From assembly GCA_027627225.1 (NCBI GenBank), contig CM051029.1, forward strand, positions 73,258,078 to 73,322,077: a stretch of DNA of 64,000 nt. The letters run 5' to 3'. Made by a program: the position numbers and the translations under genes. This DNA comes from Congeria kusceri. Taxonomy: Eukaryota > Mollusca > Bivalvia > Myida > Dreissenidae. The stretch's first letter is position 1, and each line of letters opens with the position of its first letter. Below, in pieces: positions 25,842-64,000 of this stretch. The notes beneath the pieces are model-generated. The model saw nothing but the letters and a program-made list of their open reading frames with translations. It did no database searches and had not been told where the DNA came from.

Positions 25842-26768
25842 ATGGAGATTTGTTTTGGCAGTAAGGCAGAAGGATATGACAGTGAAAATAGCAAAATTCA
25901 TGATGATGATCGATGCGCTATCTGTTTTGGCAGTATGGTAGTATGGAAGAAGGAAGAAGAATATGACCGTAGCAAAATTCATGATAATCGATGCGATATC
26001 TGCAGATTGTTTCAAAACGATGAAGATGACTATGACGATTATTTTGGTGATTGTTGTAGTGATCGTTTTGACAGTATGGAAGAAGGATACGACAGTGAAA
26101 ATAGCAAAATTCATAATGATCATCGATGCGCTATCTGTTTTGGCAGTATGGAAGAAGGATATGACAATGAAAATAGCGAAATTCATGATAATCGATGCGA
26201 TATCTGTAGATTGTTTCAATATGACGATTATTGTAGTGATTGTTGTAGTGAGTTCGAAAGAAACGAACCGAAAGTCATGAAAAACAAGCGTTACAAATCG
26301 AATAAAAAACAAACTGTAAAGCAGCATCATAAAGCTGTTCAAAACTGTAAGAGACGGCAACTATCGAAACGTAGAACAAAACTACGGAATGTCAAAAGAG
26401 ACCAAAAGCAGACACATTATCATGAAACAAACGATGATCCTAACAATCATGATTGCAACACGTATTTGGCGACTACAACGTCCTATGAAAGTCGCGGAGA
26501 CGCGGCTGAACCACACTGGCTACACAAATACAATGACATCGATGATGCCGTGGAAAATATGTTTCTAGAATCATATGAACGTTTTTCGGATGAAAAGTAT
26601 GAAGAAGAAACGAATCGTATCTACTTTTCCGACGATGAGTCATTCGAAAGGTACTGGGAAAACAAATATGAAAACCAATATCTCAGAAACATAGAAGAAT
26701 CTGACCGAAATGAAACATGTCGTGATTTCTATATATATTACAATCGCTCTGATATAAATGGCTGCTGA
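25842..26768 (+). CDS. Cys-rich protein with internal CxxC repeats
   Basis: 308 residues. The first ~140 residues hold four repeated modules, each with an acidic Tyr/Ser/Asn stretch then DxRCAICFGSM or NRCDICRLF, and DCCSD/DCCSE pairs, suggesting several zinc-binding knuckles. Residues ~145-195 are strongly basic, and the C-terminal ~100 residues are acidic with many Tyr and Trp. No known family recognised; RING-like function is possible but the His ligands are not arranged as in a RING. The TGA stop is followed at once, in the same frame, by the BIR ORF. It lies outside the duplicated unit but abuts it, with the same compact gene style. Confidence 0.7.
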   Translation: MEICFGSKAEGYDSENSKIHDDDRCAICFGSMVVWKKEEEYDRSKIHDNRCDICRLFQNDEDDYDDYFGDCCSDRFDSMEEGYDSENSKIHNDHRCAICFGSMEEGYDNENSEIHDNRCDICRLFQYDDYCSDCCSEFERNEPKVMKNKRYKSNKKQTVKQHHKAVQNCKRRQLSKRRTKLRNVKRDQKQTHYHETNDDPNNHDCNTYLATTTSYESRGDAAEPHWLHKYNDIDDAVENMFLESYERFSDEKYEEETNRIYFSDDESFERYWENKYENQYLRNIEESDRNETCRDFYIYYNRSDINGC

Positions 26769-27062
26769 ATGCGTTACCGAGTCTTAGAACATTCGTTCAC
26801 AAACATGACTTTTCAGTGCAGAGCGTTGTATTTTCGATATCGCAACGTTGAGCAGCGACTCCAAACATTTGAAGACTTGCCATCAGAACACAACATGTCA
26901 AAGGAAGACCTGGCTAGCCAAGGGTTCATCTACGACAATTGTTTCAACTGCGTTCGATGCGTGTTTTGCCATACGCATATTTGGGACATTGGAAAAGGAG
27001 ATGTGAAACTTCGGCATCGACAGCTGTGTCCTGTTTGCCCTTTCGTATTTGATTGCGAGTGA
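26769..27062 (+). CDS. BIR-domain protein (IAP-like), directly after an in-frame TGA
   Basis: 97 residues with a single baculovirus-IAP repeat: R..TFEDLP near residue 32, LASQGFIYD, then C-x2-C-x15-H-x6-C with a conserved Trp after the first Cys pair. This zinc fold binds caspases or IAP-binding motifs; viruses use such proteins to block apoptosis. It has no RING of its own. The ATG follows the upstream TGA without a gap and in the same frame, so it may be made by reinitiation, readthrough, or from its own start. AATAAA follows at about 27066. No copy exists at the start of the second unit. Confidence 0.8.
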   Translation: MRYRVLEHSFTNMTFQCRALYFRYRNVEQRLQTFEDLPSEHNMSKEDLASQGFIYDNCFNCVRCVFCHTHIWDIGKGDVKLRHRQLCPVCPFVFDCE

Positions 27063-27120
27063 TTGAAATAAAAAGCCTGAAAGGATTTTGCATGTTGTTT
27101 GTTATCTGAGTAGTTAACAT

Positions 27121-27192
27121 AACACAAAAAGCAACCAAGCTATGTTACAAAAAGTTTTATTCAACAATGTGACATGGCAATTATGTGTGCAT
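27121..27192. repeat. segment also present before the second unit
   Basis: The stretch 'aagcaaccaagctatgttac' and the following ~50 bp recur at 46641-46716 with a 5-bp insertion and a few substitutions. Homology to the second copy therefore starts to the left of the main 27807 boundary and is then interrupted. Confidence 0.8.
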
Positions 27193-27682
27193 ATCTATTC
27201 AGCGCTTTCGCACTGTACATTTCCGTAACGTGCTCTGTGTCAAGTATGGCTTTAACGAGTTCTTTTGACTTCTCAACACCATGGAAATCAATTGCACCAA
27301 CCATCCAGTTTCCATCGTGAGTCAAGTTATACAATAAGTCAAATCTGTACTGGTTCGCTTTCGTAGCAATAACGTTCAAAGTTTCTTTTGTCACATCTGT
27401 GATCAGGAACGACCAAACCGAAAAGGTATCTCGTGAAGTACAAGAGTCCATTAGAGCGTGCTGAATCTTGATAATACCAATGTCAGTTTTTCTGACAACC
27501 CATTCCACAATTTGGTCAAATAGACACATTATCGACTGTGTTGGTTTTAGTGCAGCCTTGCGTCTGGCGTAAGTGTTGATTTGACGCACAATATTTTCCC
27601 TTGTATATGTATCTATGTGATTCCACAGACCACCTGGTATGCTTTGTTTGCTGGTATCCATACCGATGACAGGAAGAAACAT
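27161..27682 (-). CDS. unknown 173-aa protein
   Basis: The product is soluble-looking, mixed alpha/beta, with no signal peptide or TM segment. A polyadenylation signal for the minus strand (TTTATT as read on plus) lies at about 27153. It is divergent from glycoprotein 1, whose start is only 76 bp away, so a shared promoter region is likely. In the second unit the gene is gone except for its last ~30 bp, so it is not needed in every unit. No family recognised. Confidence 0.6.
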   Translation of the reverse strand: MFLPVIGMDTSKQSIPGGLWNHIDTYTRENIVRQINTYARRKAALKPTQSIMCLFDQIVEWVVRKTDIGIIKIQHALMDSCTSRDTFSVWSFLITDVTKETLNVIATKANQYRFDLLYNLTHDGNWMVGAIDFHGVEKSKELVKAILDTEHVTEMYSAKALNRYAHIIAMSHC

Positions 27683-27757
27683 GACTGGAATCTGTTAGTA
27701 CAAATATTTATATATGAGCGCATATCTATCCAATGGAAAATATATCAAAAAATCGTC

Positions 27758-29767
27758 ATGTATGTGTTTGTGTATATCGTTTCCCTGTTTCTTTCCTTAG
27801 TTTTACAAACAAATGCGTTGGGAGGTTTTAACCCAAATTTTTATGAAACATCTTGTTTCAAGCCTTTACAGGACAAATCGATCGTCGTTACAAATGGGTC
27901 ATTTTATGTGTTGGTAAACGTAACCTATGATTATCTATCAGTATACGACGATGTAAAGCAAAATTTACGTTTTTTCAACAAATGGATTAACAACCCAGAG
28001 TTGGGTTTCGAGACACATGAGCAAGAAACAAGATGCAAATCCATAGGTCTATCTAGATGTCCAAACAAGAGAGAAGCGTTCTCGAAACCGGTATACAGTG
28101 TAGTTTATGGTATACGAGAGGAAAAAAAATTTGTCATGTACGAAAAACCCAGTCTATTAGTTAGATTGGAAACTGAGTCGAAAACATACTCTTTCAGTGA
28201 GTTTGTGGAATCGGTGCATACTGAGATTTCCACACACGCCTGGATACCTTTGCTAACGTACAATTTTTCATTGACCTATGATGGAAGTGAAATCTGTGCA
28301 AATGGTATTCATGGTCATGCCATCATAAGATTCAACACTAAACTGTGTTCTACGTTAGGAACATGGTGCGCTGCAAATATAGGCGGTGAAAGTCCCGAGA
28401 GATTAAATCATGCGTTAACACGTATCAAAAAAGCGTTGTTGACGGAAAAATTCAATCATTTGGCGCTATACAATCATACCAAAAACTTTGATCTAAAAAT
28501 GAACCCTCATAGATACATAGAATTGCGAGACACAATTGCACAAATTAACCAAGAAATGACTGACCTCTCAAATGTGATAGACAGCTTAAAAATCGATGAT
28601 CAGTCCGACGATGCTTACTTTGACGATAATTACTCTGACGATGATTCAAAGAAAAAGCAAAGCGATAAAAAAAAGGTTCCAGTTTTCGATCTTTCTTACC
28701 TGGTGAACCCTTGGAAAAAAAACAACACAGATCTGTCAGTTCAAAACGATACTATCGTTGACCAACAATTTAACGCTATTCAGGAAACTATCAACAAGCA
28801 TAAAATGATAATTGAGCATAACGAGAATGCCGTTGCAGAAGTATCCGCTTATGGTTTGCAAAATTGTTACTGCCTAACTTGCAATCATTCTACTACAATC
28901 GGCAAAGTGCAAAACAATCGGTGCTATTTTATCAACTTGGATTCATCATTCAAGATTTCATCTGATACGCATACTTCTCCATTTAGAGAATACGAACCCT
29001 TGATTATAGACGAACGTTCTCATGCTTTACAAGAGATACTAAGTCAAACAGTAAAACAAGTGAGCAACGAAGTTATTCTCTCCAAAAAGGCCTCATCATA
29101 TCAACTCATTGTCTACAGCACCAACGATGGTAAAACTGTTGAGAGCAAATGTATGTCGTTATTTAGAAATAAATACCAGGTGGAGAACTGCAACGAAACT
29201 GCGAATGCTGTACTGATAGCGAGAGAGGGAAATTTCAGTCGCGTACCACAAGTACCATTGCCTGATTTCAGATACTGCGATGTTGGTGCGGTCAAAGCGA
29301 GAGATGGCAAATGTTTTCGGATTGATGCAAATTGTTCGCACTCAAACATTGCGAGAGTTAACGATTTGGATGATAAGGTAGTTTCATATTTGGTGAGCAT
29401 TACTCAGAACACTGCACAAAATATGAGTGAGGCAAAATTTCAAATCAAAAATATAGATGATAGTTTTGTTACAAGCGATCACTTCATTGTGTACAACAAA
29501 ATGGCGAACAGTGGACAAGAATGCACATACGTCGACATGCGAGCAAAGACTATTTCAATCGAAGAATGCAAAAACCGACTAACCCTTTGCGAGGTGGTGT
29601 TTGCTAAAAGTACATCGAATGACGAACCGGGACTTAGAAAACTAACATTTTGGGAAACTGTCGCTGTTAGTGTTGGTGGATTCATTTTGCTTGTGGTAGC
29701 TGCTATTGGCTTCATAGTTGCACTGCACAGCATTGCCAGACACAACGAAAATGTTATTAACATTTGA
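27758..29767 (+). CDS. large type I membrane glycoprotein (gp1)
   Basis: I place the start at 27758 because that Met begins a clear signal peptide (MYVFVYIVSLFLSLVLQTNA); the frame is open further upstream but that part overlaps the divergent gene. The product has 669 residues. The ectodomain has many N-glycosylation sites and paired Cys, an acidic Asp-rich then Lys-rich linker at ~280-306, and a NCYCLTC motif at ~369-375 opening a second half that is related to gp2. A TM helix lies at ~635-658, with an 11-residue tail. Location: secretory pathway and cell or virion surface. The architecture suits a viral envelope protein, but no known fusion-protein class is recognised. It has an intact frame. 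Confidence 0.8.
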   Translation: MYVFVYIVSLFLSLVLQTNALGGFNPNFYETSCFKPLQDKSIVVTNGSFYVLVNVTYDYLSVYDDVKQNLRFFNKWINNPELGFETHEQETRCKSIGLSRCPNKREAFSKPVYSVVYGIREEKKFVMYEKPSLLVRLETESKTYSFSEFVESVHTEISTHAWIPLLTYNFSLTYDGSEICANGIHGHAIIRFNTKLCSTLGTWCAANIGGESPERLNHALTRIKKALLTEKFNHLALYNHTKNFDLKMNPHRYIELRDTIAQINQEMTDLSNVIDSLKIDDQSDDAYFDDNYSDDDSKKKQSDKKKVPVFDLSYLVNPWKKNNTDLSVQNDTIVDQQFNAIQETINKHKMIIEHNENAVAEVSAYGLQNCYCLTCNHSTTIGKVQNNRCYFINLDSSFKISSDTHTSPFREYEPLIIDERSHALQEILSQTVKQVSNEVILSKKASSYQLIVYSTNDGKTVESKCMSLFRNKYQVENCNETANAVLIAREGNFSRVPQVPLPDFRYCDVGAVKARDGKCFRIDANCSHSNIARVNDLDDKVVSYLVSITQNTAQNMSEAKFQIKNIDDSFVTSDHFIVYNKMANSGQECTYVDMRAKTISIEECKNRLTLCEVVFAKSTSNDEPGLRKLTFWETVAVSVGGFILLVVAAIGFIVALHSIARHNENVINI

Positions 29768-29809
29768 AACATATCAAACCTTGTTGTTTTGTTTTGGTCA
29801 TAACTCACA

Positions 29810-30154
29810 ATGTCTTCGTTTCAAGAATTGTATACCTTCGAAATGAGCGAAAGCAATGCTAACACCAAAGAATTTTTCATTCACGTACGGAAAGAAATCA
29901 GCGTTTCGATCAATGAGCACGAACTGCTCGAAAGCATTTTTGAAACCATATTTGATGATATCGAAGACAATAACGTTTTCACATTTGATTTGACCATTGA
30001 GTTTTGTTTCATCAATAGTAGGAAAACTCTATATCTCAGGCAGCTCAATTCGCAAACATGTTCGTGTTTTGACGTTATGTTTGCTATGCAAGAAGAAGGA
30101 ACCAATTTCACTGTTCCAGCTGATCTTCGCGTTTGTATCACAAAAACTGTATAA
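29810..30154 (+). CDS. unknown 114-aa acidic protein
   Basis: It lies 42 bp after gp1 in the same direction. The first half is acidic and predicted helical (repeated EL.ESIFETIFDDIED), the second half mixed with three Cys. There is no signal peptide. The second unit differs by one residue at the C-terminus (K to T region), so the frame is conserved. Function unknown. Confidence 0.65.
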   Translation: MSSFQELYTFEMSESNANTKEFFIHVRKEISVSINEHELLESIFETIFDDIEDNNVFTFDLTIEFCFINSRKTLYLRQLNSQTCSCFDVMFAMQEEGTNFTVPADLRVCITKTV

Positions 30155-30193
30155 TAGCCATTTTGCACATAATTTCACAATATAGCACTTCTG

Positions 30194-30592
30194 ATGGAAG
30201 ACAAAGTTAAACCATGCAACAGTGAGCGTTGCACGTTATGTTCTCAAATGAAGGCTGGAAATAGTTTTCAGTTCAATTGCGGTTTTGTGTATATCGTCGA
30301 AGATGGAGAAAACCTATCTTGTAACTCAAAAGACGTTATATACGTTTTGAAGTGCAACACTTGTTGCGGTGAGTACATTGGAGAGACCGTAAATCTGAGA
30401 AAACGCATTCACACACACAACTCTCAGCATTTGTGTCGAGCTACTGATCACTTGATCGAATGTGGGAAACACTTGTGCGACGTTAAAGAGCGTTACACTG
30501 TATTCGTTTTGGAGACAGAGCGAGACAAGTATGTGCGCAAAGCCAAAGAGGCGTACTACATTCGGCTATTCCAGCCAATGATGAACAAGTAA
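30194..30592 (+). CDS. GIY-YIG nuclease-domain protein
   Basis: 132 residues. An N-terminal CNSERCTLC pair may bind zinc. The nuclease core follows: VIYVLKC (GIY position) and EYIGET (YIG position) spaced as usual, then LRKRIHTHN with the conserved Arg, and a C-terminal KAKEAYYIRLFQPMMNK with the catalytic Glu and terminal Asn. GIY-YIG enzymes cut DNA in repair, homing and large DNA viruses. It is a stand-alone domain of about usual size. It sits in a run of plus-strand genes. Substrate cannot be inferred. Unit 2 carries D/Y and F/L changes outside the core motifs. Confidence 0.85.
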   Translation: MEDKVKPCNSERCTLCSQMKAGNSFQFNCGFVYIVEDGENLSCNSKDVIYVLKCNTCCGEYIGETVNLRKRIHTHNSQHLCRATDHLIECGKHLCDVKERYTVFVLETERDKYVRKAKEAYYIRLFQPMMNK

Positions 30593-30671
30593 GGCGTGTA
30601 TTATTTTGTACATGTATATATAGCTACGTTTAACAAACAAAAACTAATCACACTCACAATCACTTTCTACA

Positions 30672-31277
30672 ATGGCACAACAAATGATGAACTCGAGCTA
30701 TGCTAGGAAAATGCAAAACCGATTACGCATAGAGGAGTTTGCGAACACTGTACTGAAACACGGCGTTAGAAGAAATTTGGTTTCTGAAGTCGAGCCAGAT
30801 GTCTTCTTGTCGCCTAACGATACTTCAAAGATAGAAGACCTTTCTGAGAAACTGAAACAGATTGATGCCAAACGAGCGCAGTACAAAAGCCTAAAAGTAA
30901 GAAAGCAGCATTTGATCAAGGGCATCAAAAAAACAAAAAATTTGCGAGACGATGTTGTGAAGACTGTGCGCTCTAACGTTGTCAATCGGATTCCAATTGG
31001 TATGCTCAACGATATACTCGGTTCTGGCGAAGACGAAGACATGTTCGCTTTGATAGAACGAATCAAAACGACCAAGGTTCAGGAGAAGCGCAACTATGCC
31101 GATATCGACATCTCCGATGCAGAAATGTCAGATACGCTGAACGATGAAGACCAGGAAATCATGAACGCTCTGGCTGCCAAGAGAAAGCGCAAAACTGGTG
31201 CGAACAAAGCTGTCAAGAAAGCGAAAAACGAGAAGACTATACTCAGTGATCTAGAACTGAGCGTTGATGACCAATGA
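30672..31277 (+). CDS. unknown 201-aa basic coiled-coil protein
   Basis: Residues ~50-105 are charged and likely coiled coil (KIEDLSEKLKQIDAKRAQ). An acidic stretch near 150-165 follows, then a strong nuclear-localisation type cluster (KRKRKTG, KKAKNEK) near the end, and an acidic last ten residues. TATATATA at about 30615-30622 is a plausible TATA box, ~50 bp before the ATG. The product is probably nuclear or DNA-binding; no family is recognised. Unit 2 lacks one codon and has several substitutions but stays open. Confidence 0.7.
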   Translation: MAQQMMNSSYARKMQNRLRIEEFANTVLKHGVRRNLVSEVEPDVFLSPNDTSKIEDLSEKLKQIDAKRAQYKSLKVRKQHLIKGIKKTKNLRDDVVKTVRSNVVNRIPIGMLNDILGSGEDEDMFALIERIKTTKVQEKRNYADIDISDAEMSDTLNDEDQEIMNALAAKRKRKTGANKAVKKAKNEKTILSDLELSVDDQ

Positions 31278-31389
31278 CTTCGTTGTTGTAACATTGTTTG
31301 ATTTTTGTCGATTGATGTATGCTATATTTTGGTATATGTGGAAAATAAATTGTACCGTCGAACAGTAAACATTTGTTGTTGCGTTATCA

Positions 31390-31977
31390 ATGGATATCGA
31401 TGAGGTTTTGATTATTGACGAAGACGAACAGTTAGCACAAAACACCTACTTGTTTTCACCCATGTTCTCTCGACAACACAACGAATGTTCACTATGCATT
31501 TTTCAGTACATAACAGAATACGAAGAGCAAATACGCACATTCGAAAGCAAGCTAGCCGAGATTAACTCGAAACTCGGGTGTGGAATTCAAACGTGTGTTA
31601 CAATGGTTCTCAATGAGTTCAAAGACGATGAACGCATGTCGTTGTTCAAGAAATTGACACCTAGGGAAATTACTAGTCATTTTGACTCAGTATTCGGTGA
31701 TCCAATGTGTGGATACAACCGACTGAAAGCTTACAATTTTTTCTCTCTGTTTGACGATACTACTATCAACAATTCCGCGTACATCAAGTTTATTTACGAT
31801 ACATACAAACATTCGAGAAACACTTCACTCTGTCCGTACTCGCTTTTAGGCGTGTATGTTTTTTTGGTTATGATCAATACTATAGGATGTGATGCACAGC
31901 TGAAGAAGAAACATGACTTTTTGTGGATGTTCAACTGTCTATGCAATCACAAATTACGGTTTGGAAAGTTGCGTTGA
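31390..31977 (+). CDS. unknown 195-aa protein
   Basis: The ATG follows AATAAA (31345) and a short leader. The product is acidic at the N-terminus and then largely helical with several Cys; the end is basic (CNHKLRFGKLR). No signal peptide; a hydrophobic patch at ~155-165 (GVYVFLVMINTIG) is too weak for a sure TM. The 3' end overlaps the next frame by 55 bp if that gene starts at 31923. Function unknown. Confidence 0.65.
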   Translation: MDIDEVLIIDEDEQLAQNTYLFSPMFSRQHNECSLCIFQYITEYEEQIRTFESKLAEINSKLGCGIQTCVTMVLNEFKDDERMSLFKKLTPREITSHFDSVFGDPMCGYNRLKAYNFFSLFDDTTINNSAYIKFIYDTYKHSRNTSLCPYSLLGVYVFLVMINTIGCDAQLKKKHDFLWMFNCLCNHKLRFGKLR

Positions 31978-32669
31978 GTGACAAGAAAAGAAAATATCTA
32001 TTTAAGGTAAATGTTTCTGTAGAAGCGCTAAAATCGCACAAAACCATGTCAACCATAAACGTTAAGGATATTAATCGTGTCACTGACACTGAGGCCACGA
32101 ATCGCTTGTTCACTAAACTTAAGTACGATATTGGCATTCAAATCACTTCGAAGCTAATTCAGTCGCTTAAACAAAGCAAAGACAGTGTTGTTTTTTATGT
32201 GGGAAAAGAACAAAGGTCTTACCCGGCAGCAATCGTGAAAATGTTCACAATCGTTAAGACAAACCATGTCAAGATTACGAACTACAGTGTTCAAGAATTG
32301 ATGAACGTGTTTGAAATTCTCATGAACCTGTCCGACTACCAATGTAACGGTCTCACGCAAGATTACTCGGATTGGCAGTCGATCTCTAGCCTGGTTAACA
32401 TGATTGAGTTTGCTGAGTTCCTAGGCATGACAGAAGTGGTGTTGTTTCTAAAACGTATTCCACAACTGCTTACATTTCACAACAAAAACGCGTACGACAA
32501 CGAATTGCTCAGAAGAGGAAACGAGTCTAAGGAAAATCTACAACCTATGTCCGTCAACGAACCTAGCGAAAACGATGAAAAACGTTCAAGGTCTAGAAAG
32601 AGAAGCTTTACAAAGGTGTTCAGTCGTAGTCTGAGTCGAAAGCGCAGAGATGAGAATGTCATGTCATGA
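31923..32669 (+). CDS. BTB/POZ-like protein with basic Ser/Arg tail
   Basis: The frame is open from 31923; ATGs at 31923, 31941 and 32046 are all possible, and 32046 (MSTINVKDIN) avoids overlap with the previous gene. A central ~110-residue segment has a BTB-like pattern: DSVVFYVGKEQRSYPAAIVKMF, then VKITNYSVQELMNVFEILM, then LVNMIEFAEFLGMTEVV. The tail has RSRKRSF and SRSLSRKRR. BTB proteins often serve as CUL3 adaptors, which would fit the RING genes nearby. This assignment is by pattern only. The unit 2 copy is frameshifted. Confidence 0.5.
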   Translation: MDVQLSMQSQITVWKVALSDKKRKYLFKVNVSVEALKSHKTMSTINVKDINRVTDTEATNRLFTKLKYDIGIQITSKLIQSLKQSKDSVVFYVGKEQRSYPAAIVKMFTIVKTNHVKITNYSVQELMNVFEILMNLSDYQCNGLTQDYSDWQSISSLVNMIEFAEFLGMTEVVLFLKRIPQLLTFHNKNAYDNELLRRGNESKENLQPMSVNEPSENDEKRSRSRKRSFTKVFSRSLSRKRRDENVMS

Positions 32670-32866
32670 ATGTTGTATGTTGTATGTTGTCGAATGTATG
32701 TTGTTAAAGTAGCTAAACAGTAAACTTGTGTGTTGTTTTCTTCACGCAGTAGTACAAAAACCAAGACTTCAATACATGTTCAAAATAGTTTTTATTCGAT
32801 CAGTACCAAAGATACAAACATTCAAAGATCAACAGTATCACAAGCATATATACAACTTTTTTGTAA

Positions 32867-33277
32867 TCAGAAATAGATGCGAATAGTTTCTTGCACCTCT
32901 GCTCGACACATAGCACACATCGGTTCTATCGTTCTATCCATCATTCGAGAAATGCAGTCTTCGCAAAACGTATGACCACATGGAACAATTGCAATAGATT
33001 TTTCTGTCCAATAACATATTTCGCAAAGATGTTTTTGCTTTAGCGCTTTTTGCAATGTGTCAAGTTGAGTCGCGAATGTCTTTTCTCGTTCATTCCACAT
33101 AGCCAAAGTTATTATCTGTCTCATCTTGGTAGTCTCATCTTGGTAGCAACATTCGTCTCGAAAGGCAACACGAATTTCTTCCATCGCCTCTATGCATTCG
33201 TTGCGTATCTTTCTTGTGGACAACCACCAGTGCAGTTGTTTCAGATAGAATACCGATAGGAATGTTACGACGATCAT
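32867..33277 (-). CDS. membrane-anchored RING-finger protein (E3 ligase-like) A
   Basis: 136 residues. The N-terminus (VVTFLSVFYLKQL) is hydrophobic and may anchor the protein. A charged helical region with likely coiled coil follows. The C-terminal RING at ~95-135 reads CEIC ... CGHTFCEDC ... CAMC, a C3HC4 type with a short tail. Such RINGs recruit E2 enzymes. The minus-strand polyadenylation signal is near 32789. It is convergent with the BTB-like gene. The unit 2 copy is intact with one change (C/S). Confidence 0.85.
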   Translation of the reverse strand: MIVVTFLSVFYLKQLHWWLSTRKIRNECIEAMEEIRVAFRDECCYQDETTKMRQIITLAMWNEREKTFATQLDTLQKALKQKHLCEICYWTEKSIAIVPCGHTFCEDCISRMMDRTIEPMCAMCRAEVQETIRIYF

Positions 33278-33432
33278 AGTTTCTTCTTTTTGTCAACACT
33301 AGGCTGTATGCGATCCCAAATCTTGTCTGGCTTTCTTTCTTCGATTATCAAACGAGTGCACAAAATGAGCATACTGTTTACTAGTGTGGCAATTATATAT
33401 ACGCGTATTTATAAGGAGTCACAGTTTGCACT

Positions 33433-33988
33433 ATGGAGTACTTTGACAGCATATGGTTCGATGCTCGTTTGAATATGCAAGAGGAAAAACGCATTCAAAA
33501 ACGGCAATGGAAAATCCAGTCACTAGCTGCTGCGAAACAGTTGTGGGAATTAGTATCAAAGCATCTGAGCATAACAACCACAGAGAAGCCTAGGGTAAAA
33601 TTGTTTCGCCTGTCAAAATCTGAAACATTTGAATCATATGCATTGTTTTGTCCAAACTGTGAACCTCACCCTGAGTTCGATCAAAATTACATGCTTTGGA
33701 ATAACACTTCATTTGAGTTTATTTGCAAGACTAGGTGAAGATGACAACGATGACGGTTTTATGCTAGTACTGGACACACCAGACGATACAAAACTGTATT
33801 TCAACATTTATGATCGGGATGGCGAAATTGACAAAAAGCATTATCTACTCAAATCCAACGGTTCTGCAATGTGTAGGGAAATTCTCGATATGATTGGTCT
33901 CAAAGACATCATTCACGAAGATGATTTGTTTGCAGAGTTGGCATCAAACATATCGTTAGATAGTGAATGTGAATGTGATGATGAATAA
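33433..33988 (+). pseudogene. unknown 187-aa gene, frameshifted in unit 1
   Basis: Compared with the intact copy at 52623-53186, unit 1 lacks 8 bp near 33682. This ends the first frame at 33738, and the rest of the coding sequence continues in another frame to 33988. The upstream region has TATTTATAAGG at about 33407-33417, a TATA-like element. AATAAA overlaps the stop codon. The product (see unit 2) has a CPNCEPHPEF motif and an acidic C-terminus (DSECECDDE). Family unknown. Confidence 0.7.
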
Positions 33989-34032
33989 AACAACCAAACA
34001 TATTGTGTATGTGTGTTATTCTTTATTTTTAC

Positions 34033-34452: not shown

Positions 34453-34461
34453 TTTTAACAG

Positions 34462-35489: not shown

Positions 35490-35533
35490 AGAAAATCAAG
35501 AATGACTAGATCCTTTTGTAAAGGTCTCTTATA

Positions 35534-35947: not shown

Positions 35948-35985
35948 TGTTGGTTTTTATTCATTCAACTAACAGAACACACAGC

Positions 35986-35993
35986 ATATATAA
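35986..35993 (-). promoter_or_regulatory. TATA-like box for gp3
   Basis: TTATATAT on the minus strand, about 40 bp before the gp3 ATG. It lies between the neighbouring stop codon (36004) and that gene's AATAAA (about 35957), so promoter and terminator signals are interleaved. Confidence 0.45.
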
Positions 35994-54690: not shown

Positions 54691-54749
54691 AGAAAATCAA
54701 GAATGACTAGATCCTTTTGTAAAGGTCTCTTATACTAATTTTCATTTCG

Positions 54750-55148: not shown

Positions 55149-55204
55149 TGTTGGTTTTTATTCATTCAACTAACAGAACACACAGCATATATAACAAAAA
55201 ACAT

Positions 55205-56542
55205 TCACAATGCAAAATCGGCAGGTATATACAACACGAGGCCGTTGGAAAGCAATTCCTTCGACACACAAAATGTGCAAAAGTTAGGCGGAACGTGAAT
55301 GTTGGGAATGCACGTTCGAACCGCTTGAGAGAGTATGTCTTCTTTTTCATCGTTTTGAAACTCGTTGATGAAGTATACTTTACATGGGTTCTCCTCAGGT
55401 AAGATGTCGCTTACTGGCATGGGATTCTCTTGTACCTCTTGTTCTGGGTTGAACGTTTCCACAATTTCTTCTTTCACGAATGACAAATCGACCGGCATAC
55501 TGAGTATCTCGTTCTGCTCTGGAAATGCATTCTCGTAAGAACCACGCATTTCAGTCCATTCTTCTGTTTTGCATAACATCTTTTTCGGAAGACTCGATTG
55601 GTCTTTTGCATGTTCAACAAATTTGCGTTTGCGATTAGGAATAGCATAAGCTAGTCTTCCCTTTCCCCCATCGATCAGCTCCGTTTTAACAAGAAGACTG
55701 TTGATGTGCTGGTTGTACAGAGGATGCAGCAAGAAGAGAAACTCTAACGCCTGGCACAAATTCGAATTTGGATATCCATACTTTGGTCTCAGTGTGTCTA
55801 AGTTAGCATTGTGCTCTGTCAGTTCGATACCAGTTCTCAACGCTTCGTATATTCCACCACAGCTTCTAACAATCTTCAGACCTATCGTGAGCTCTTTCTG
55901 TGTGCTAATCAGCTGGAAGTTTGTACTCGGCAGCACTCCTTTTCTCACCAATATTTCTATGATATCGTTTTCCGAACAATCGAGCAATGTCATGACTGCT
56001 TGAAAGTAGCTGTTCAACTTCAATCGTATCTGAGTCCTTTCCAATGAAAGGCAAGTCGATTTCACGGAATAACATTTGCTGAACTCCTCGATTCCGTGCA
56101 ACTCCAACACTGGTATTATGCATATCGGCAGTCTGTAGTTTTCGGTTGGAGATGACTGCATGTATCTACCCTTCTTGATGCGTTCGTATAGATTTGCGAA
56201 ATGTTCTGGTATAAGATTTTTCAATATCTTGAAGTAGCACATATCAGTCTTTTCGTCGGCGACAGAAAACATCAAGTCTACATATCGTTCAAACGCAGCT
56301 AGTGTTGGTGCATCGAGAAACACATGGTCCAGCGTTGGCTTGTAGTTCAAGTAGTCGTACGGACTGTTCGTTATCGCCGTGAAACGCAGTCCCTCTGCAT
56401 CTGTGAAAGGACATGTTACGCTGAACATGTACTTCTTCTGGTGACCACTGGCATTGAAATTTCGTTTCTCACGAATGAATTCTTCACACAATGTTTTGAG
56501 ATACATGTTGTCGCTTCGATTGTCAGATTGTAAATGAGGCAA
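55205..56542 (-). CDS. unknown 445-aa protein, unit 2
   Basis: Copy of 36004-37341 with one residue difference (H to R near residue 24). Confidence 0.75.
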   Translation of the reverse strand: MPHLQSDNRSDNMYLKTLCEEFIREKRNFNASGHQKKYMFSVTCPFTDAEGLRFTAITNSPYDYLNYKPTLDHVFLDAPTLAAFERYVDLMFSVADEKTDMCYFKILKNLIPEHFANLYERIKKGRYMQSSPTENYRLPICIIPVLELHGIEEFSKCYSVKSTCLSLERTQIRLKLNSYFQAVMTLLDCSENDIIEILVRKGVLPSTNFQLISTQKELTIGLKIVRSCGGIYEALRTGIELTEHNANLDTLRPKYGYPNSNLCQALEFLFLLHPLYNQHINSLLVKTELIDGGKGRLAYAIPNRKRKFVEHAKDQSSLPKKMLCKTEEWTEMRGSYENAFPEQNEILSMPVDLSFVKEEIVETFNPEQEVQENPMPVSDILPEENPCKVYFINEFQNDEKEDILSQAVRTCIPNIHVPPNFCTFCVSKELLSNGLVLYIPADFAL

Positions 56543-56630
56543 ATTCAGTTAGTCAAAGCGCATTTTATACGGTTTGTCATATTACAAAGATCGGTTTATA
56601 AACCTGTCTTGTTGATTTTCTATTTCAGCG

Positions 56631-57365
56631 ATGGCTCGTTGCAGCGAGAGGAAGGGCGATTGCAAACTGCATTCACTTATCAACACAAACCAACCCGAGT
56701 TGTTAGCAACGTACATCAATCAAAACTTTGATTTTGAGTCATCTTGTTACCTTGTTATCAAAGAAACGCATGTTTTGCCTATTGATTTCACACAACAAGA
56801 TTTGAAGCAAGTTGTCATTCATAGCTCGAAATCTGAATTTATGCAATATATGAAACTAACATTCAATGGTTCACAAAGCAATGGGTCTGATTTTCTGCTC
56901 TCTGAACAAACCAATTACGAAGATATCTACGGCAATGAGGTGCATCAGTGTCACATTTATTTTTCAAACGCATGTACCAAAGATATGGCTGCTACAAGCT
57001 ATTTCTTGACGTGCGCTTTTAGCACAACTGGCGTTCTAACATTTTCAAAACACACACTTGAAAAACTAGCATCGTGCTTGATTAAAAGATATGGTCAAAC
57101 ACTCATACCCAAATGCACTACAGAGTTTTGGAACAACAAACTTGACTCATTTCGCATGAGATGCCTTCGTGAGAAAACATATGAGGTCTCACAGCAAGAT
57201 GACTCAATAACACTTCATGAAGAAATTGAACGCTTGGCGCAATCCAAGTACGATTTCGTTAGTTGTGAATACAATACTGCGTGTAGAACTCTCAAGATTC
57301 TGTTTCGTTGTTCGAGCGACAACAGCTTTGGGTTAGTGGCTCTCGCACAGTCGCCGAGTATATAA
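56631..57365 (+). CDS. unknown 244-aa protein, unit 2
   Basis: Protein identical to the 37430-38164 product; stop codon again overlaps the following TATA box. Confidence 0.7.
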   Translation: MARCSERKGDCKLHSLINTNQPELLATYINQNFDFESSCYLVIKETHVLPIDFTQQDLKQVVIHSSKSEFMQYMKLTFNGSQSNGSDFLLSEQTNYEDIYGNEVHQCHIYFSNACTKDMAATSYFLTCAFSTTGVLTFSKHTLEKLASCLIKRYGQTLIPKCTTEFWNNKLDSFRMRCLREKTYEVSQQDDSITLHEEIERLAQSKYDFVSCEYNTACRTLKILFRCSSDNSFGLVALAQSPSI

Positions 57366-57366
57366 A
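57359..57366 (+). promoter_or_regulatory. TATA box of the spliced gene, unit 2
   Basis: TATATAAA, 62 bp before the ATG at 57421. Confidence 0.7.
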
Positions 57367-57420
57367 GCGCCGAGTCAGTGCAAAGTCAAATCATTCTTGA
57401 TATCAAAGCCAAAGAGCAAC

Positions 57421-57802
57421 ATGTCGTACAACAATAGCTTCTATGTACCAGCAACTACATTCCAGGTGCCTGTCACTGAGGACTGGGATGCAGAAATAGA
57501 GCTGTCGCAAATGCAAAGTAAGTTGTGTTGCTTTGTATGTACTTTTATGTTACTGTAGAAAATGGAATGTTGCATACATGAATGTTTATACGCAATAACT
57601 ATGTTTCGCTTGTTGTGTTTCAGATACAGCCAGAACTAAGACAACCACTCCAACCGAGGACTGGGACGCAGAAGCTGATGAGGCGAAGCGTGCGCCATTC
57701 TTCCTACGTGTTGGGAAGCTTACGCAGCGACAACTCAACAGACTGCACAGATGTTGGACGTGTCGCTGCGTCCCAGTGAATTGTAGATGTAAAAAAAATT
57801 GA
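57421..57802 (+). CDS. small two-exon TEDWDAE gene, unit 2
   Basis: Exons 57421-57517 and 57624-57802 with the same 106-nt GTAAGT/TTTCAG intron. No coding difference from unit 1. Presence of the intron shows the duplication was at DNA level, not through cDNA. Confidence 0.75.
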
Positions 57803-57912
57803 ATAAAAATGTTGAAACGTTAACATGTGTTTGTTTGTTTTATAGATTATGGTAGAAAAATGTTATATAGGTAGTAATTTGAAAATTCGCTAAGTACTCA
57901 TCGCACACAAAA

Positions 57913-58242
57913 ATGCTAGCCGTTGAACTGAAAGATTTAAGCTTTTTTCGACACATGTTGCATTTGAACCTCGAACAGTGGAACAAAGCTGTCGAAATTT
58001 ACTTAACTGATCTCTATCCTGATGTTCAGTTTACATTCTCGCAGCGAGATCAATGTTGGAAAGTGACAAATACCGACATGGTGTATTATGTCGATATTGA
58101 ACTAATTCTAACGAGTACAAAATATGCTTTCTGCTGGAGAGACCAGAATCAAATCAAACGACTTCAGACGATAAATGGTATTTTGTTGCGCTCAAAAGCC
58201 GAGAGAGCAAAACACGTATCGTTTGACCAAGAGTATTTCTGA
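57913..58242 (+). CDS. unknown 109-aa protein, unit 2
   Basis: Copy of 38712-39041 with one residue change (G to A). Confidence 0.6.
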   Translation: MLAVELKDLSFFRHMLHLNLEQWNKAVEIYLTDLYPDVQFTFSQRDQCWKVTNTDMVYYVDIELILTSTKYAFCWRDQNQIKRLQTINGILLRSKAERAKHVSFDQEYF

Positions 58243-58340
58243 AAAAAGTATTAACGCGCTTGTAAAGAGTTGTAACTCATAAAATATTTCATTTCATGGA
58301 TTAAACCGACGCTTTATGCACTTATCACTCGGGAAGATAT

Positions 58341-58595
58341 ATGGAAACATATTCCGAAAGACTGAAGACATTTGAACACTGGTCGCCACAAATAAAACCG
58401 AACAAATATGAGTTAGCTTCTTGCGGTCTGTATTACTTAGGGCAACACGATCGTTGCAAATGTTTTAATTGTGGTGTTGTATTGTACCATTGGAAATCAA
58501 CTGACGATGCTTGGCTCGAACACCACAAACATTCGCCGAATTGCCAGTTTTTGCGAATGGTGGGACCAGGGACAAGATTGTTATTAAACCCATGA
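58341..58595 (+). CDS. BIR-domain protein, unit 2, shorter N-terminus
   Basis: A GAA to TAA change at codon 3 of the upstream start (58296) leaves only the internal Met at 58341 (MΕTYS region). The full BIR with C-x2-C-x16-H-x6-C is kept, so an 84-residue protein remains possible and only the first 15 residues are lost. Confidence 0.8.
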   Translation: METYSERLKTFEHWSPQIKPNKYELASCGLYYLGQHDRCKCFNCGVVLYHWKSTDDAWLEHHKHSPNCQFLRMVGPGTRLLLNP

Positions 58596-60491
58596 GCATG
58601 TTTCGTGTAAACGGTACTCAATAAATATCATGAACTGTACATTTCGTTTTGTTCTTGTTTTGTGTTCGACAATAGTTAACATAGCACCGCAAACATATAC
58701 AGAGTACAACCATGCTTGTGTAAAGTGAATGGTTTTCGAGTTCGCTATTGCGCTGATGTTACAGACCAGTGTGTTCTGTTTTCTATAAAGGTATAACTTA
58801 AGTATTCTCTACGCAAACACAACAACAAGGTATACGAAGTTTGAAAAGATTTTATTGAGGAAGAATCAATCTTTCATATAATCATTGTATCGACAGTTCA
58901 TTTACAGTCAACGTACACAGTCCTCACAACTGCAAATGTCTTGCACCTCTGTTTTTGGCATAACCCTGCATTTCGCCACACCATTTGCATTTCATCGACT
59001 CTTGAGACGTAACAGCGCTTTGATTTGCAAAATCACTCAAACGATGGTATGTTGATCGAAAGGAGTTTCATGTTTTGTGTATATTTGCATCGATTGAATT
59101 CTTTTCAAGAAAGACAAGGTTTGAACAATAGTTGGTTTAATTCATTCGAGAACATATTTTTCTACTAAAATCGTGACAAACATTTGTAGTTTTTCTTGTT
59201 TTGTGAGGAAATACAACGTTGAAAGTTAAACGGATATTGACACATTTGCACCTTCCTGCCTTAGGTATAATCGATACATGCGGTGTGAGTCATCATATCG
59301 GAATTTGCCAGTCGCAATGCATTTTGAGGCTTTTTTGGTGGATTTTGTGTTGATTTGTTAATGAAATTCTGTCAGATGTGAAGATAACGATACAGTAAGT
59401 ACCACGACAATGTGTTGTGCTCTTTGATAACAGACAAAACATTGTATTTTTGAAATGCCATCAAATCTCAAATGTCAAAAAAAAGGTGAACTATACAATG
59501 AATGATCTTGTGTTTTGTTTTCTGTACCAAAACTGAGATCCTGAAAACAAAATGTGTTCTTTGATTCAGATGATTGTGACTACTTCTGTTTTGTGGAAAA
59601 GAACTCAGTTGAGAAAAACTTGATATGTGTTGTTTTGTTTTCTGAGCTACACCAGACTTTTTTGACTTGAGTTTATTTGTACACATCAAACTCTGCCAGG
59701 AAAAAATGATTTCTAGAATGCATGGACACTCAGTATTGCTTGGTAACTTCCTGAGTTGAATAATTTCTGACCAGGAACAACATTTCAAGATGACACTTAT
59801 GTGGAAGAAGACATGTACACTGATTTGTCAGCATATTTCTAGGCTCAGTTTTCATATTTTAGCCATAGAATGCACAACTGACAATTTCGAAGTCTACTTC
59901 GCAAGCACATTTAATGTCTAAAACTGCAGAAAAAAACTATATACACGTCAAAATGCTAATTCTGCTTCTTTTGCCAGCATATGAATGTTTGGCCATAATC
60001 TTTTATTCAATTTAACACAAATGTGTGTTTCTACAAGCCAACCCTTTTGGTAGCCTGTTTCGGGTCAGAGTGCCTATAGTATAGATTATTGAGTTTCAAG
60101 AAGCAAAACTGGCATAACATTTGTGTGTTTAGAACGTTCCAAAAAATGTATTTACACAAAAAATTGAAACTTTGCATGTTGGTCAGTACTGAAAATGTAT
60201 TGCCCCAAATCTGTTATCATGTTCACTTGACATGGCGGATAAATTCATCTTCAATCAGAAATGAACCTAAATGCATTTGAAAATCCTGTTTCAGGTCCGG
60301 TTTTCTCTGACCAGTGTCTATAGAAGGTATATTTGAGATGTTTGAAGTAAATCCCACATAACTGGTTATGGTTGAGATTGATGGAAAAAAGGTATAAACA
60401 CAGAAAATGGAATTTTTAGCTGTTTCGCAGGCATGGATTCAGTTTATTCAAGCAAGGCATATTGACTCTGCATAGTTAATCAAATCATGAA

Positions 60492-60569
60492 GCCAGAGTA
60501 GTTTAATGAAAAACGCTTTCTCATGTAGCAACTGAGAAAGAGATCTGGGTGCAATTCCCAGTTCTGGCA
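60492..60569 (+). ncRNA. tRNA-like element 1, unit 2
   Basis: Identical to 41291-41368, including the TTTT run after it. Confidence 0.6.
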
Positions 60570-61079
60570 TGTTTTGTGAAACCATTGCGTGAGTCAAGAA
60601 AGCATCTTTTGGCACCAACAAGCAATTTAAACCCTGTCTCGGTTCAAAATTTCTGAATTGTTTCACAATGCACATACTGCAAGGTTAAAAAGATTCAAGT
60701 TTCAATCCAGTATAACTGTTTTGACTGAATATTCCCATGATAAAATGGACATTCTCTATTTTATCAGCATGAGAATGTCTTCATACAAATCATTTCTTCA
60801 CCATGTTATGTGGACTGTTATGAGTTTATTAGCAAGCAGAAACAGTTATAACCCTCTCTCGGTTCAGAATTTCAGAGTTATATCTGAAGGAGATATGACT
60901 GCAAATTTTCAAGTCAATCATACATACCCAGTTTGATTGGAAGATACAAGAAAAATGCACATGAATGTAATTTTGAACATTGTTTTCTCTTGTCAAAACT
61001 GAAAATGTTTGACCATAAACTCATATCTTCATGTTAGCAATGCAATACCAGTTGGCTACAGCATTGATCAGCTCATATT

Positions 61080-61160
61080 GCCCAAGTAGTTGAATGTGAA
61101 ACGCTTTTTTCAGCCCTGTGCTTGAAGAAGGAGATCTGGGTTCAAACCCTAGCTCTGGCA
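61080..61160 (+). ncRNA. tRNA-like element 2, unit 2
   Basis: Identical to 41879-41959. Confidence 0.5.
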
Positions 61161-61673
61161 AGAGTTGTAAAAGGATTGTAGAGTCGTGGGTCTATTGTAT
61201 TAACTCTAGAATTTCATATCTATGTTCATGAAGCAAATTCTGAACAAATTCATATGATTAGGTAATGATATTGATGAATGTTTGTATCTTGAACCATGGT
61301 TATACATGCTATAGTTGCAAGTAAAGTGACCAATTTTTGAAATCACATTTGATAAGCTACTATGATATGATATTGTCAAAATCTACAGTTAATATTTAAC
61401 AACAGTCTTAGATTTCAAAATATACAAAACATCTCATGACACAATTGTAGTATCAAATTTTTTATTTCGTCAAATCACTACTTGTACAATTTAGCTCATG
61501 ATATTTGCATCTATCTGATCAATTGTATAATTTGACTTCAAAAATGTATTTCACTCAGCTTCTTAATTGTGCATACATGTTGCATTTCAGTATTTTCAGA
61601 TTACATCAAACAAACATTCTTTCATTCAGTAAAAACAAATAACACAGTTGAAAGGTTCATATTCATTTATGTA

Positions 61674-62145
61674 TCAACCGATAATGACATAACCTGGTCC
61701 AAAATTACAACTAGTTTGACCATCATATTGTATTTTGCATTTCAGACAAATCAATCGCCCAGAATTTTTATTGTATACGAATTCCAAATACTTCAAGATG
61801 CAGTTCATACAACAAAACCCGTGCCCACACTTCTTGCTGAACACTCTAGGTGGATTGCTTTCACTTTTACATACTTTGCATGAGTCGATTTCGCCACTGT
61901 TTTTTAGATCGCTTGAAATGCTGTCTATAGCATGTGAAATGTTTTGATGCAGTTGATAGATACGAGGTTACCCTCGAGTCATCACTTTCTTCTGATTTTA
62001 CGTATTGTAACGCTTTTTCGATGTATGCGATCCTCGTCTGAGCATTGCCGTGTAACGATTTAAGTTTGTCTTGTTTGCGGATGTAGTCTTCGACAATCAA
62101 AGTATGATAAATGAAAACTGCTGTCAAGTCGTTTGTACAGTACAT
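61674..62145 (-). pseudogene. RING-finger gene B with the same break, unit 2
   Basis: Same two-frame arrangement as 42473-42944. Two substitutions were noted in the overlap region (near 61892 and 61944); the RING ligands are unchanged. Confidence 0.65.
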
Positions 62146-62483
62146 GGACGAACATGTGTGTGATGCTTAGCAAGGGTAGAACTACTCAGTACTTGAAATG
62201 AAGTGTATAGGATCAGACTGCTGATGTATGATAGCTATAGAATAGGCTCAATGCTAGCCAGTATTAAGAGTTGAGCTACAGTGGGGATGTAAATCGAACC
62301 GATGATGTAAAAGGATGGTGAAATGCTCTGAACAAAACATGATGCTGCAGTAAAAATGTGGTTGTTGATTTGCACTTACTATGCTATGATATTGTTTTGC
62401 ATGCATGTTGTCACACTGCAATTTTATTTCAGGTGGCTGTGGTAAGTATTGTAGTGTAAGAATTTTTGAATATACGATGATAA

Positions 62484-63125
62484 ATGAAAACTGCTTTCGA
62501 GTCTTTTGTACAGTTGGCGAAATACGCTCACAGACTGCCGAAGTTTGAGGACCCCGATGCTACTAGTAGCAGTAGCGATGCAGCCTCTATTAGTAAGGGC
62601 AAGCGACATGCCGCAAAACCGTACGCTCCACCAGAACAATCGGCGTTTAATGAATTTAGATCGTTCAGGTATCATCTGAACAGACTAGGTAGTCAAATAA
62701 CAGCGTTTTCTCACAACAGCGACTTTGCTATGACCAAGGAAGGACGCCAAGTCTGTAGCAAACTAATGGCGTGCTTACAGAAGGCGTCCTACTATCACGG
62801 CGAAGCCAGTAAACACTTGATCGATGACAAGCAGCGTTACTTCGAGGAAGAATGGGCTAAGCGGGAACGACTGCTTCGAGAGCAAAACGAAATAGAAATC
62901 GAAGAGAGGGTGAATGCTGTGACGGCCCAACTTCAGCTGGAAAAAGAACAAACGGTGAAAGACTTGCGGACGTGCATAATTTGCTGCGATGCTGAAAAGA
63001 ACTGTGCTTTAACGAAATGCAGACACACATTCTGCGAAATGTGTTGTTTGATGATGTTAGGTGATAAATGTGCAATGTGTAGAACTGAAGTGGAGGGTTG
63101 GGTAAAAATTCTGCTTACTGACTAG
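62484..63125 (+). CDS. RING-finger protein C, unit 2
   Basis: Protein identical to the 43283-43924 product. Confidence 0.85.
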   Translation: MKTAFESFVQLAKYAHRLPKFEDPDATSSSSDAASISKGKRHAAKPYAPPEQSAFNEFRSFRYHLNRLGSQITAFSHNSDFAMTKEGRQVCSKLMACLQKASYYHGEASKHLIDDKQRYFEEEWAKRERLLREQNEIEIEERVNAVTAQLQLEKEQTVKDLRTCIICCDAEKNCALTKCRHTFCEMCCLMMLGDKCAMCRTEVEGWVKILLTD

Positions 63126-63251
63126 ATGTGTATATGCTTGTATGTTTGTGTATATGCTTGTATGTTTGTGCAATAAAATGTTGAAATAAATTTCATGTCT
63201 TAGTCATTTGTTTGGTAGTAGTGTACGTTAGAGTAGATGTTGTAGTTGAGC

Positions 63252-63446
63252 TCACAACGTCTTCTCATCACATTGCGATAGAGCGAAATACTTGATCAGA
63301 CAATTTCTGATAAAACGCTCACTTGTCACAAATGCGATGAAAAGCAGAATTTTGATTTCTAAAATAAGCGGCTCTAACATAAGCACGTACAGGGTAACAA
63401 GTAAAAACATTTCAGACAACATAAGCTGACTTTTTTGTCTTATCAC
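63252..63446 (-). CDS. possible small hydrophobic protein, unit 2
   Basis: Identical to 44051-44245; same doubts apply. Confidence 0.3.
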   Translation of the reverse strand: MIRQKSQLMLSEMFLLVTLYVLMLEPLILEIKILLFIAFVTSERFIRNCLIKYFALSQCDEKTL

Positions 63447-63814
63447 GAAATTGAACGTTGTGGTGAAGAACTTTCACATATCAATGCTTCAACATAGGTA
63501 GGCGTTTTTGCTCAACAGTTTGAGACTCGAAAACATATTGATATTGATTTTGGTATGTTGCAACGAAGCAACGATGTTTGATCTCTCTACAACAAGACAC
63601 ACACATTTTATATGCGTTTGTTAATCATTGCAAGTATAACGCTATATTCGGTTAGCATTACTGAAGTCAAAATCTCATAGCTTGACTCGAAGAGCAAGGG
63701 TAAACTTGACAGTTTACAGCGAATGAATACAAAATGAGAAAATTAACTTCATGTATATTAAATACCTAGCTTTTGACAGAACTCAATCATTCTCACTTGA
63801 GTTAGCAAAGCGAC

Positions 63815-64000
63815 ATGGCCTCCAAACAGCTTACCGATGTTGGTTTTCGTTTGGACGATGAAAATCATCCATTCTATTCCACCCCAAGTGAGATCGACCA
63901 AACTTGTCAAAGGGTGTACTCGCTCCTAAAAATGCCAGTGGAAGAAGCTGAAAATGAGTATCATTCGCGAGAGGACGAAGAAGCTGCTAATTTCATAGCC
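63815..64000 (+). CDS. unknown acidic/basic protein, partial, unit 2
   Basis: First 62 codons of the copy of 44614-44976, cut by the window end; no difference seen in the part present. Confidence 0.6.
   Translation, partial: MASKQLTDVGFRLDDENHPFYSTPSEIDQTCQRVYSLLKMPVEEAENEYHSREDEEAANFIA

What the first reader, a model, noticed from the sequence alone, without database searches (positions are those of the whole stretch)
25842..64000. Compact virus-like gene cluster in a repeat-rich animal genome
Seen: about 21 tightly packed genes per unit on both strands, with three membrane glycoproteins, a GIY-YIG nuclease, three RINGs, BIR proteins, a BTB-like protein and many orphan proteins. Known: large DNA viruses, including malacoherpesviruses, encode BIR and RING proteins. 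Inferred: an endogenised large DNA virus or virus-derived segment. No polymerase, helicase, capsid or terminase was recognised, so it may be a partial provirus or, like polydnavirus segments, a cargo unit replicated by genes elsewhere.
Basis: partly seen in the sequence, partly recalled or inferred. Interest (0 to 1): 0.9.

Follow-up and report, generated by a model that had tools for sequence, protein, structure and literature searches.

The report
Multi-copy endogenous herpesvirus, likely in bivalve
The gene cluster is the terminal repeat, copied in tandem, of a roughly 157-kb herpesvirus that sits as about 25 copies (21 with an open polymerase gene) in the chromosomes of what is probably a bivalve, and that seems to insert much as a transposon does although no transposase gene was recognised in it.

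Summary
Window 25634-64000 is a tandem array of the terminal repeat (TR) of an endogenous herpesvirus. Elsewhere in the same 1.55-Gb genome this sequence flanks full elements, TR (~38 kb) - core - TR, about 157 kb. The core, absent from the window, matches Pfam models for DNA polymerase, terminase, assemblin, origin-binding protein, herpes helicase, glycoprotein B, protein kinase and deoxynucleoside kinase. Its terminase is 63% identical to that of Soft-shell clam herpesvirus 1. Of 25 polymerase loci found, 21 are full-length and open. Ends are exact: (A)CCACAGCC...GAGTTGCT. 8 of 12 full elements tested have 4-6-bp target-site duplications, against 3 of 180 mismatched flank pairs. No transposase or integrase was recognised. 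The window array starts at the exact left viral end; units 2-4 each join the right viral end to one internal point of the TR, with no polymerase match nearby. Its copies differ almost neutrally. Inferred, not shown: insertion of linear genomes by an unrecognised integrase, and TR arrays from defective concatemers or later rearrangement.

The parts
25634..47012 (+). Unit 1: terminal repeat from exact left viral end to exact right viral end, shorter than the ~38-kb TR of full elements
   Evidence: Left end ACCACAGCC at 25634 and right end GAGTTGCT at 47012, matching the ends of full elements
47013..64000 (+). Unit 2 (cut by window end), starts at the equivalent of 27807; lacks the first 2.17 kb
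   Evidence: 99.5% identical to 27807-44799; junction GAGTTGCT|AAACAAATG
25634..25800 (+). Left terminus with T run, GCGGCG and G-tract/AT/C-tract; reminiscent of herpesvirus pac signals (recalled, not tested)
   Evidence: Sequence printed; 26-bp end motif has 66 exact copies in the genome, reversed control 0
46813..47012 (+). Right terminus of the TR, in a sub-repeat ending GAGTTGCT
   Evidence: 40 of 151 candidates scored, each 100% over 200 bp
25842..26765 (+). Acidic Cys-repeat protein, 308 aa
   Evidence: ORF; no Pfam match
26769..27059 (+). BIR protein
   Evidence: Pfam BIR 2.2e-10
27164..27682 (-). Orphan protein, 173 aa; 80% relative in the element TR
27758..29764 (+). Membrane glycoprotein-like, 669 aa; C-terminal part related to the 34465 protein
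   Evidence: ORF; blastp 24% over 195 aa, 1.8e-12
29810..30151 (+). Orphan, 114 aa
30194..30589 (+). GIY-YIG nuclease-like, 132 aa
   Evidence: Pfam 3.6e-7
30672..31274 (+). Orphan, 201 aa
31390..31974 (+). Orphan, 195 aa; weak Herpes_env match below cut-off
   Evidence: Pfam 0.0062
32046..32666 (+). Orphan ('BTB-like' not confirmed)
   Evidence: No Pfam match
32870..33277 (-). RING protein 1
   Evidence: Pfam 4.2e-10
33432..33988 (+). Orphan, two frames in copy 1; open in copy 2 at 52623-53183
34036..34452 (-). Bcl-2-like protein (suggestive only)
   Evidence: Pfam 3.1e-4 below cut-off
34465..35495 (-). Second membrane glycoprotein-like, two overlapping frames
35537..35947 (-). Small membrane protein
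36007..37308 (-). Orphan 434 aa, best conserved TR gene tested; relatives in D. polymorpha and metagenomes
   Evidence: 31 homologues at E<=0.01; no fold match
37430..38161 (+). Orphan 244 aa
38219..38602 (+). Predicted spliced gene, GT-AG intron
   Evidence: no RNA evidence
38712..39038 (+). Orphan 109 aa
39095..39391 (+). BIR protein
   Evidence: Pfam 4.2e-21
39400..42470 (.). Non-coding part with tRNA-like pieces (by eye)
42476..42965 (-). RING protein 2, two frames in copy 1
   Evidence: Pfam 1.5e-4 on one piece
43283..43921 (+). RING protein 3
   Evidence: Pfam 1.5e-7
44614..44973 (+). Orphan 120 aa

Best explanation
The window holds a decaying tandem array of the terminal repeat of an endogenous herpesvirus. 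The complete element is about 157 kb: direct terminal repeats of about 38 kb around a core with herpesvirus replication, packaging and entry genes. Shown: exact shared ends, about 25 core copies, near-identical repeats within an element, short target-site duplications in most full elements tested, and core-less TR loci including the window. Inferred: linear genomes with packaging-type ends are inserted into chromosomes by a staggered-cut enzyme that was not recognised; TR-only loci come from recombination between the two TRs or from defective TR-only genomes; the window array grew from one joining of the right viral end to a broken left end, then by unequal exchange or rolling replication. The TR genes (two BIR, RINGs, perhaps a Bcl-2) most likely block cell death and redirect host ubiquitination during infection, and the membrane proteins act at the envelope or cell surface (by family analogy).
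For: Core genes: polymerase 3.8e-37 and terminase 7.9e-9, assemblin 1.9e-7, origin-binding protein 3e-31 and kinase 3e-34, glycoprotein B 6.8e-12, dNK 1.2e-47, herpes helicase 4.2e-8; PDB terminase 1.3e-13 and gB 5.4e-8. Terminase 63% identical over 100% to Soft-shell clam herpesvirus 1, unclassified Herpesvirales. TRs of one element 99.5-100% identical. 66 exact left ends, 0 reversed controls; 19 pairs 115-135 kb apart, and each of the 19 has a polymerase locus between its ends (compared by eye). Target-site duplications 8 of 12 against 3 of 180. Window ends and junctions. Window copy 1 against 2: pN/pS 0.81; window against a full element: 0.53.
Against: No capsid protein was recognised. 4 of 12 full elements, including the best-read one, and 3 of 4 solo TRs show no duplication; 4 further elements were dropped because the right end was not found or ran on. 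No integrase seen. The counts for pN/pS are small (7 synonymous, 22 nonsynonymous). Assembly error in repeats this alike cannot be excluded for single loci.
Confidence: 0.93

Rival explanations
1. The array is an amplified host gene cluster whose genes were later captured by the virus.
For: BIR, RING and Bcl-2-like proteins are host-type families, and the array has no viral core genes.
Confidence: 0.03
2. TR-only arrays are integrated defective or satellite genomes: TR units carrying ends and perhaps an origin, copied head to tail with help from full virus, like class I defective genomes of herpes simplex virus (recalled).
For: Several core-less tandem arrays with 22.7-25.5-kb spacing, e.g. 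five right ends on C17; one C17 unit read keeps about 1.1 kb of core remnant between TR right and left ends; the same run-on after the right end in 6 of 6 short array pieces from C17, C1, C10 and C14; a TR-TR head-to-tail join in C8.
Against: The window array has another junction and lacks the left end in units 2-4; array lengths were not measured; no origin was identified; the C17 unit start is only 81-88% like the full-element TR, so it is old or diverged.
Confidence: 0.35
3. TR-only loci and arrays are chromosomal by-products: recombination between the two TRs leaves a solo TR, and unequal exchange multiplies it.
For: Solo TRs of 38-44 kb with both exact ends at 4 loci; one has a target-site duplication; near-neutral differences between window copies; all three window-array junctions read share one breakpoint.
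Against: A chromosomal duplication whose breakpoint falls exactly on the viral right end is a coincidence; 3 of 4 solo TRs have no target-site duplication.
Confidence: 0.5

Closest known systems
Soft-shell clam herpesvirus 1 (unclassified Herpesvirales)
   Same: Terminase 63% identical over 100% of its length; bivalve host by name
   Different: Only its terminase was seen here; whether it integrates is unknown to me
Teratorn, 180-kb piggyBac-alloherpesvirus fusion of medaka (PMC5601938, passages read)
   Same: Multi-copy, complete herpesvirus gene set in animal chromosomes, transposon-like insertion
   Different: Teratorn carries a piggyBac transposase and terminal inverted repeats; here no transposase was recognised, ends are 38-kb direct repeats, and the duplication is 4-6 bp of varied sequence
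BelcheriHV-1, integrated malacoherpesvirus-like genome of a lancelet (PMC12373286, passages read)
   Same: About 150-kb invertebrate herpesvirus integrated in a chromosome
   Different: Reported as an integration found in 20 resequenced samples, not as a repeat family with tens of copies and exact ends
Acipenserid herpesvirus 3 in lake sturgeon (PMC12031113, passages read)
   Same: Integrated herpesvirus with direct terminal repeats and intact genes
   Different: Its terminal repeats are telomere-like; here insertion is at dispersed sites with short duplications
Class I defective genomes of herpes simplex virus (recalled)
   Same: Tandem units made of terminal-repeat sequence without the core
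   Different: Here they are chromosomal; free forms were not tested

Membership tests
Herpesvirales | Herpes-type terminase | tested here: met
   Pfam DNA_pack_N 7.9e-9; herpes tripartite terminase in PDB 1.3e-13
Herpesvirales | Assemblin (S21) maturation protease | tested here: met
   Pfam 1.9e-7, above cut-off
Herpesvirales | B-family DNA polymerase, origin-binding protein and herpes helicase | tested here: met
   3.8e-37, 3e-31, 4.2e-8
Herpesvirales | Glycoprotein B fusogen | tested here: met
   Pfam 6.8e-12; PDB gB 5.4e-8
Herpesvirales | HK97-fold major capsid protein | tested here: inconclusive
   Large orphan proteins had no Pfam match; no structure predicted
Malacoherpesviridae | Core proteins group with OsHV-1 and HaHV-1 | tested here: inconclusive
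   No OsHV-1 or HaHV-1 protein appeared among 13 terminase hits or the 120 listed of 350 polymerase hits; no reference was available for a tree
Teratorn-like elements | piggyBac-type transposase | tested here: not met
   No transposase among 72 element ORF pieces scanned with Pfam; smaller ORFs not scanned
Teratorn-like elements | TTAA target duplication (recalled) | tested here: not met
   Varied 4-6-bp duplications in 8 of 12 elements
Telomere-integrating herpesviruses | Telomere-like terminal repeats | tested here: not met
   Fetched termini show no telomere repeat and varied host flanks
Polydnavirus segments | Packaged circular segments with wasp-type genes | not tested
   No packaging data; nothing seen that points there
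Maverick/Polinton | Retroviral-type integrase and protein-primed polymerase | tested here: not met
   No integrase matched; polymerase lacks the protein-primed Pfam model in its hits

The most novel reading that the evidence does not exclude
This is a herpesvirus for which integration is a regular part of life: unit-length linear genomes, cut at packaging-type ends, are inserted at dispersed sites with about a 5-bp staggered cut by an integrase of a kind not yet known, possibly the RNase H-like nuclease of its own terminase, and its core-less terminal-repeat units spread as dependent satellites.
Probability: 0.35. Interest if true: 0.93.

Novelty: new variant of a known kind. Interest (0 to 1): 0.82.

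Why it matters
Herpesviruses are thought to integrate rarely, and the known multi-copy case (Teratorn) borrowed a piggyBac transposase. About 25 core copies with exact ends, short target duplications and a mostly open polymerase in an invertebrate suggest a second route by which a herpesvirus becomes a genomic repeat. Such a family gives a fossil record of molluscan herpesviruses, lets insertions be dated from TR divergence, and makes the missing integrase a concrete question. It also warns that IAP, RING and Bcl-2-like gene expansions in bivalve assemblies may be viral.

Tried and rejected
Rejected or led nowhere: BTB-like domain. The Bcl-2 reading stays unproven: the model is weak (mean pLDDT 62) and its best fold matches are chance-level, though Mcl-1 and Bcl-XL chains appear among them. 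The 434-aa orphan folds with partial confidence but matches nothing at E<=0.001 in the viral or PDB library. Five scans of viral contigs found no relative of the 434-aa protein or the terminase; the polymerase found none as a single sequence and 36 distant ones at 21-30% as an alignment. Rfam: nothing at gathering score. Literature: no paper held all of 'malacoherpesvir', 'endogenous', 'Dreissena'; the listings showed no report of this element; they list only the top papers. Rosani et al. 2023 on invertebrate herpesviruses is not held and may bear on novelty. A tree of 13 close polymerases and 5 distant ones put the 13 together with full support, midpoint-rooted.

Not obtained: the full list of right ends; the request was made many times but the machine was busy.
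Full report
What is in the window. Two copies of one unit lie in tandem: 27807-44799 and 47013-64000 are 99.5% identical over 17,004 columns. The unit is gene-dense on both strands. Pfam recognises two BIR proteins, a GIY-YIG nuclease and three RINGs; a Bcl-2 match stays below the curated cut-off, and the BTB-like protein has no match. To the left lies a LINE with endonuclease and reverse transcriptase.

Where else it occurs. The genome has 1.55 Gb in 1071 contigs; the window is on contig C6. A 1-kb probe gave 40 matches (40 of 119 candidates scored): four in a row on C6, while many others come in same-strand pairs about 115-121 kb apart. Ten-kb pieces taken alternately from two such pairs show that the paired sequences are long direct repeats at both ends of one element. 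Within an element they are 99.5-100% identical over the stretches compared, and pieces upstream do not match the element.

What the element is. ORFs of the core match polymerase, terminase, assemblin and two OTU proteases, origin-binding protein and a kinase, glycoprotein B, deoxynucleoside kinase, a kinase, two BIR and RING proteins and a herpes helicase. Terminase and glycoprotein B also find herpesvirus chains in the PDB. 13 terminase homologues were found, 56-94% identical; the one named is Soft-shell clam herpesvirus 1, at 63%. 13 polymerases at 45-90% precede a gap to about 25% in the list. No capsid protein was recognised.

The TR gene 36007-37308 has 31 homologues. Four are named Dreissena polymorpha and lie on contigs of 76-153 Mb, so relatives are chromosomal there too. 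Some homologues share exact contig lengths with polymerase and terminase relatives (54,762; 7,488), which suggests one contig each. That the host is a bivalve is an inference from these names.

Copies. Of 32 polymerase matches listed (36 of 69 candidates scored), 21 loci are full-length and open at 99-100% identity, four loci are broken, and two matches are distant (24% and 36%). The exact 26-base left end occurs 66 times, the reversed control never. They form 19 pairs 115-135 kb apart (median 119.8 kb), two extra ends in tandem on C8 and 26 unpaired ends. Comparing by eye, 19 of 19 pairs hold a polymerase locus (16 open, 3 broken). Six unpaired ends lie on contigs where a polymerase is nearby; of the other 20, 14 are on contigs C3-C16, the window among them. 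Both lists are lower bounds.

Ends and insertion. Twelve further left ends and the two of one element share (A)CCACAGCC; one of these starts at CCACAG without the A. The right end is ...GAGTTGCT. The best-read element spans C5:16523694-16681095, 157.4 kb, with TRs of about 38 kb. Both flanks were obtained for 12 of 19 pairs and 4 solo TRs. Allowing one base of freedom at the left end, 8 of 12 and 1 of 4 have duplications of 4-6 bp, against 3 of 180 and 1 of 60 mismatched pairings (Fisher 1.9e-9 and 0.12). A first test on 9 loci gave 4 of 9 against 2 of 72. Of 11 elements added later, 4 were dropped: three right ends were not in the fetched stretch and one ran on into array-like sequence. One element ends at an earlier sub-repeat, again at GAGTTGCT. 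No transposase or integrase matched among 72 ORF pieces; smaller ORFs were not scanned.

The window array. It starts at the exact left end, 25634, and unit 1 ends at the exact right end, 47012. Units 2, 3 and 4 begin at the same internal point, next to GAGTTGCT; one junction has a one-base difference. Unit 3 is 26 kb. A piece at C6:73368900-73371900 shows no unit sequence beyond a 133-bp match to left-flank window sequence, so the array ends, or unit 4 is cut, before it. Against the ~38-kb TR, unit 1 lacks a long repeat-rich stretch and has 43314-44962 in opposite orientation. Synonymous and nonsynonymous changes between window copies give pN/pS 0.81 (7 and 22 changes); window against one full element gives 0.53 and against another, for one gene, 0.44. 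This fits decay after insertion and some constraint before, but counts are small.

Other core-less loci. The last 200 bp of unit 1 match 40 places at 100% (40 of 151 candidates scored), many 22.7-25.5 kb apart in rows, such as five on C17 and three on C1. One C17 junction read for 6.2 kb goes from the right end through about 1.1 kb related to both edges of the core to a TR start 81-88% alike, and reaches the TR's non-coding middle without the gene cluster. Six of six short array pieces run on identically as far as read. These look like units that lost nearly all of the core.

Mechanism. Shown: exact ends, direct repeats, short duplications, multiple open copies, core-less arrays. Inferred: insertion of linear genomes by an unrecognised staggered-cut enzyme; solo TRs by recombination between TRs; arrays by defective replication or unequal exchange. 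The role of BIR, RING and Bcl-2-like proteins in blocking cell death is by family analogy.

Known and new. Teratorn is a 180-kb herpesvirus fused with piggyBac (PMC5601938, passages). A lancelet carries an integrated malacoherpesvirus-like genome (PMC12373286, passages), and lake sturgeon carries an integrated alloherpesvirus with telomere-like repeats (PMC12031113, passages). PMC10175614, PMC10707223, PMC11092209 and PMC11521996 were seen as passages; other papers as listings only. The combination seen here, many copies, 38-kb direct repeats, short duplications and no recognised transposase, was not found in these searches; a key paper (10.3389/fmars.2023.1159754) is not held.

Noticed in passing
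13942-18622: LINE-type retrotransposon with endonuclease (1.5e-13) and reverse transcriptase (6.1e-35) ORFs left of the array.
   Followed up: no
22893-24108: Satellite of 14 copies of an 88-bp unit.
   Followed up: no
46249-46324: tRNA-Arg-like sequence in the TR non-coding end, with similar tRNA-like pieces near 41330 and 41925; possibly SINE-derived (by eye).
   Followed up: no
L024:3864-4565: Core gene with somatomedin-B and TSP1-like domains, host-type extracellular domains in the virus.
   Followed up: no
L013:4384-6420 and L014:6019-8145: Two OTU-type protease genes in the core.
   Followed up: no
L110 (C277): Right TR of one element runs on into the same sequence as the core-less arrays, so full elements and arrays may be physically joined.
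   Followed up: partly
C12:57356052-57530034: One pair is 135 kb apart instead of about 120 kb, so that element is larger, about 174 kb.
   Followed up: no
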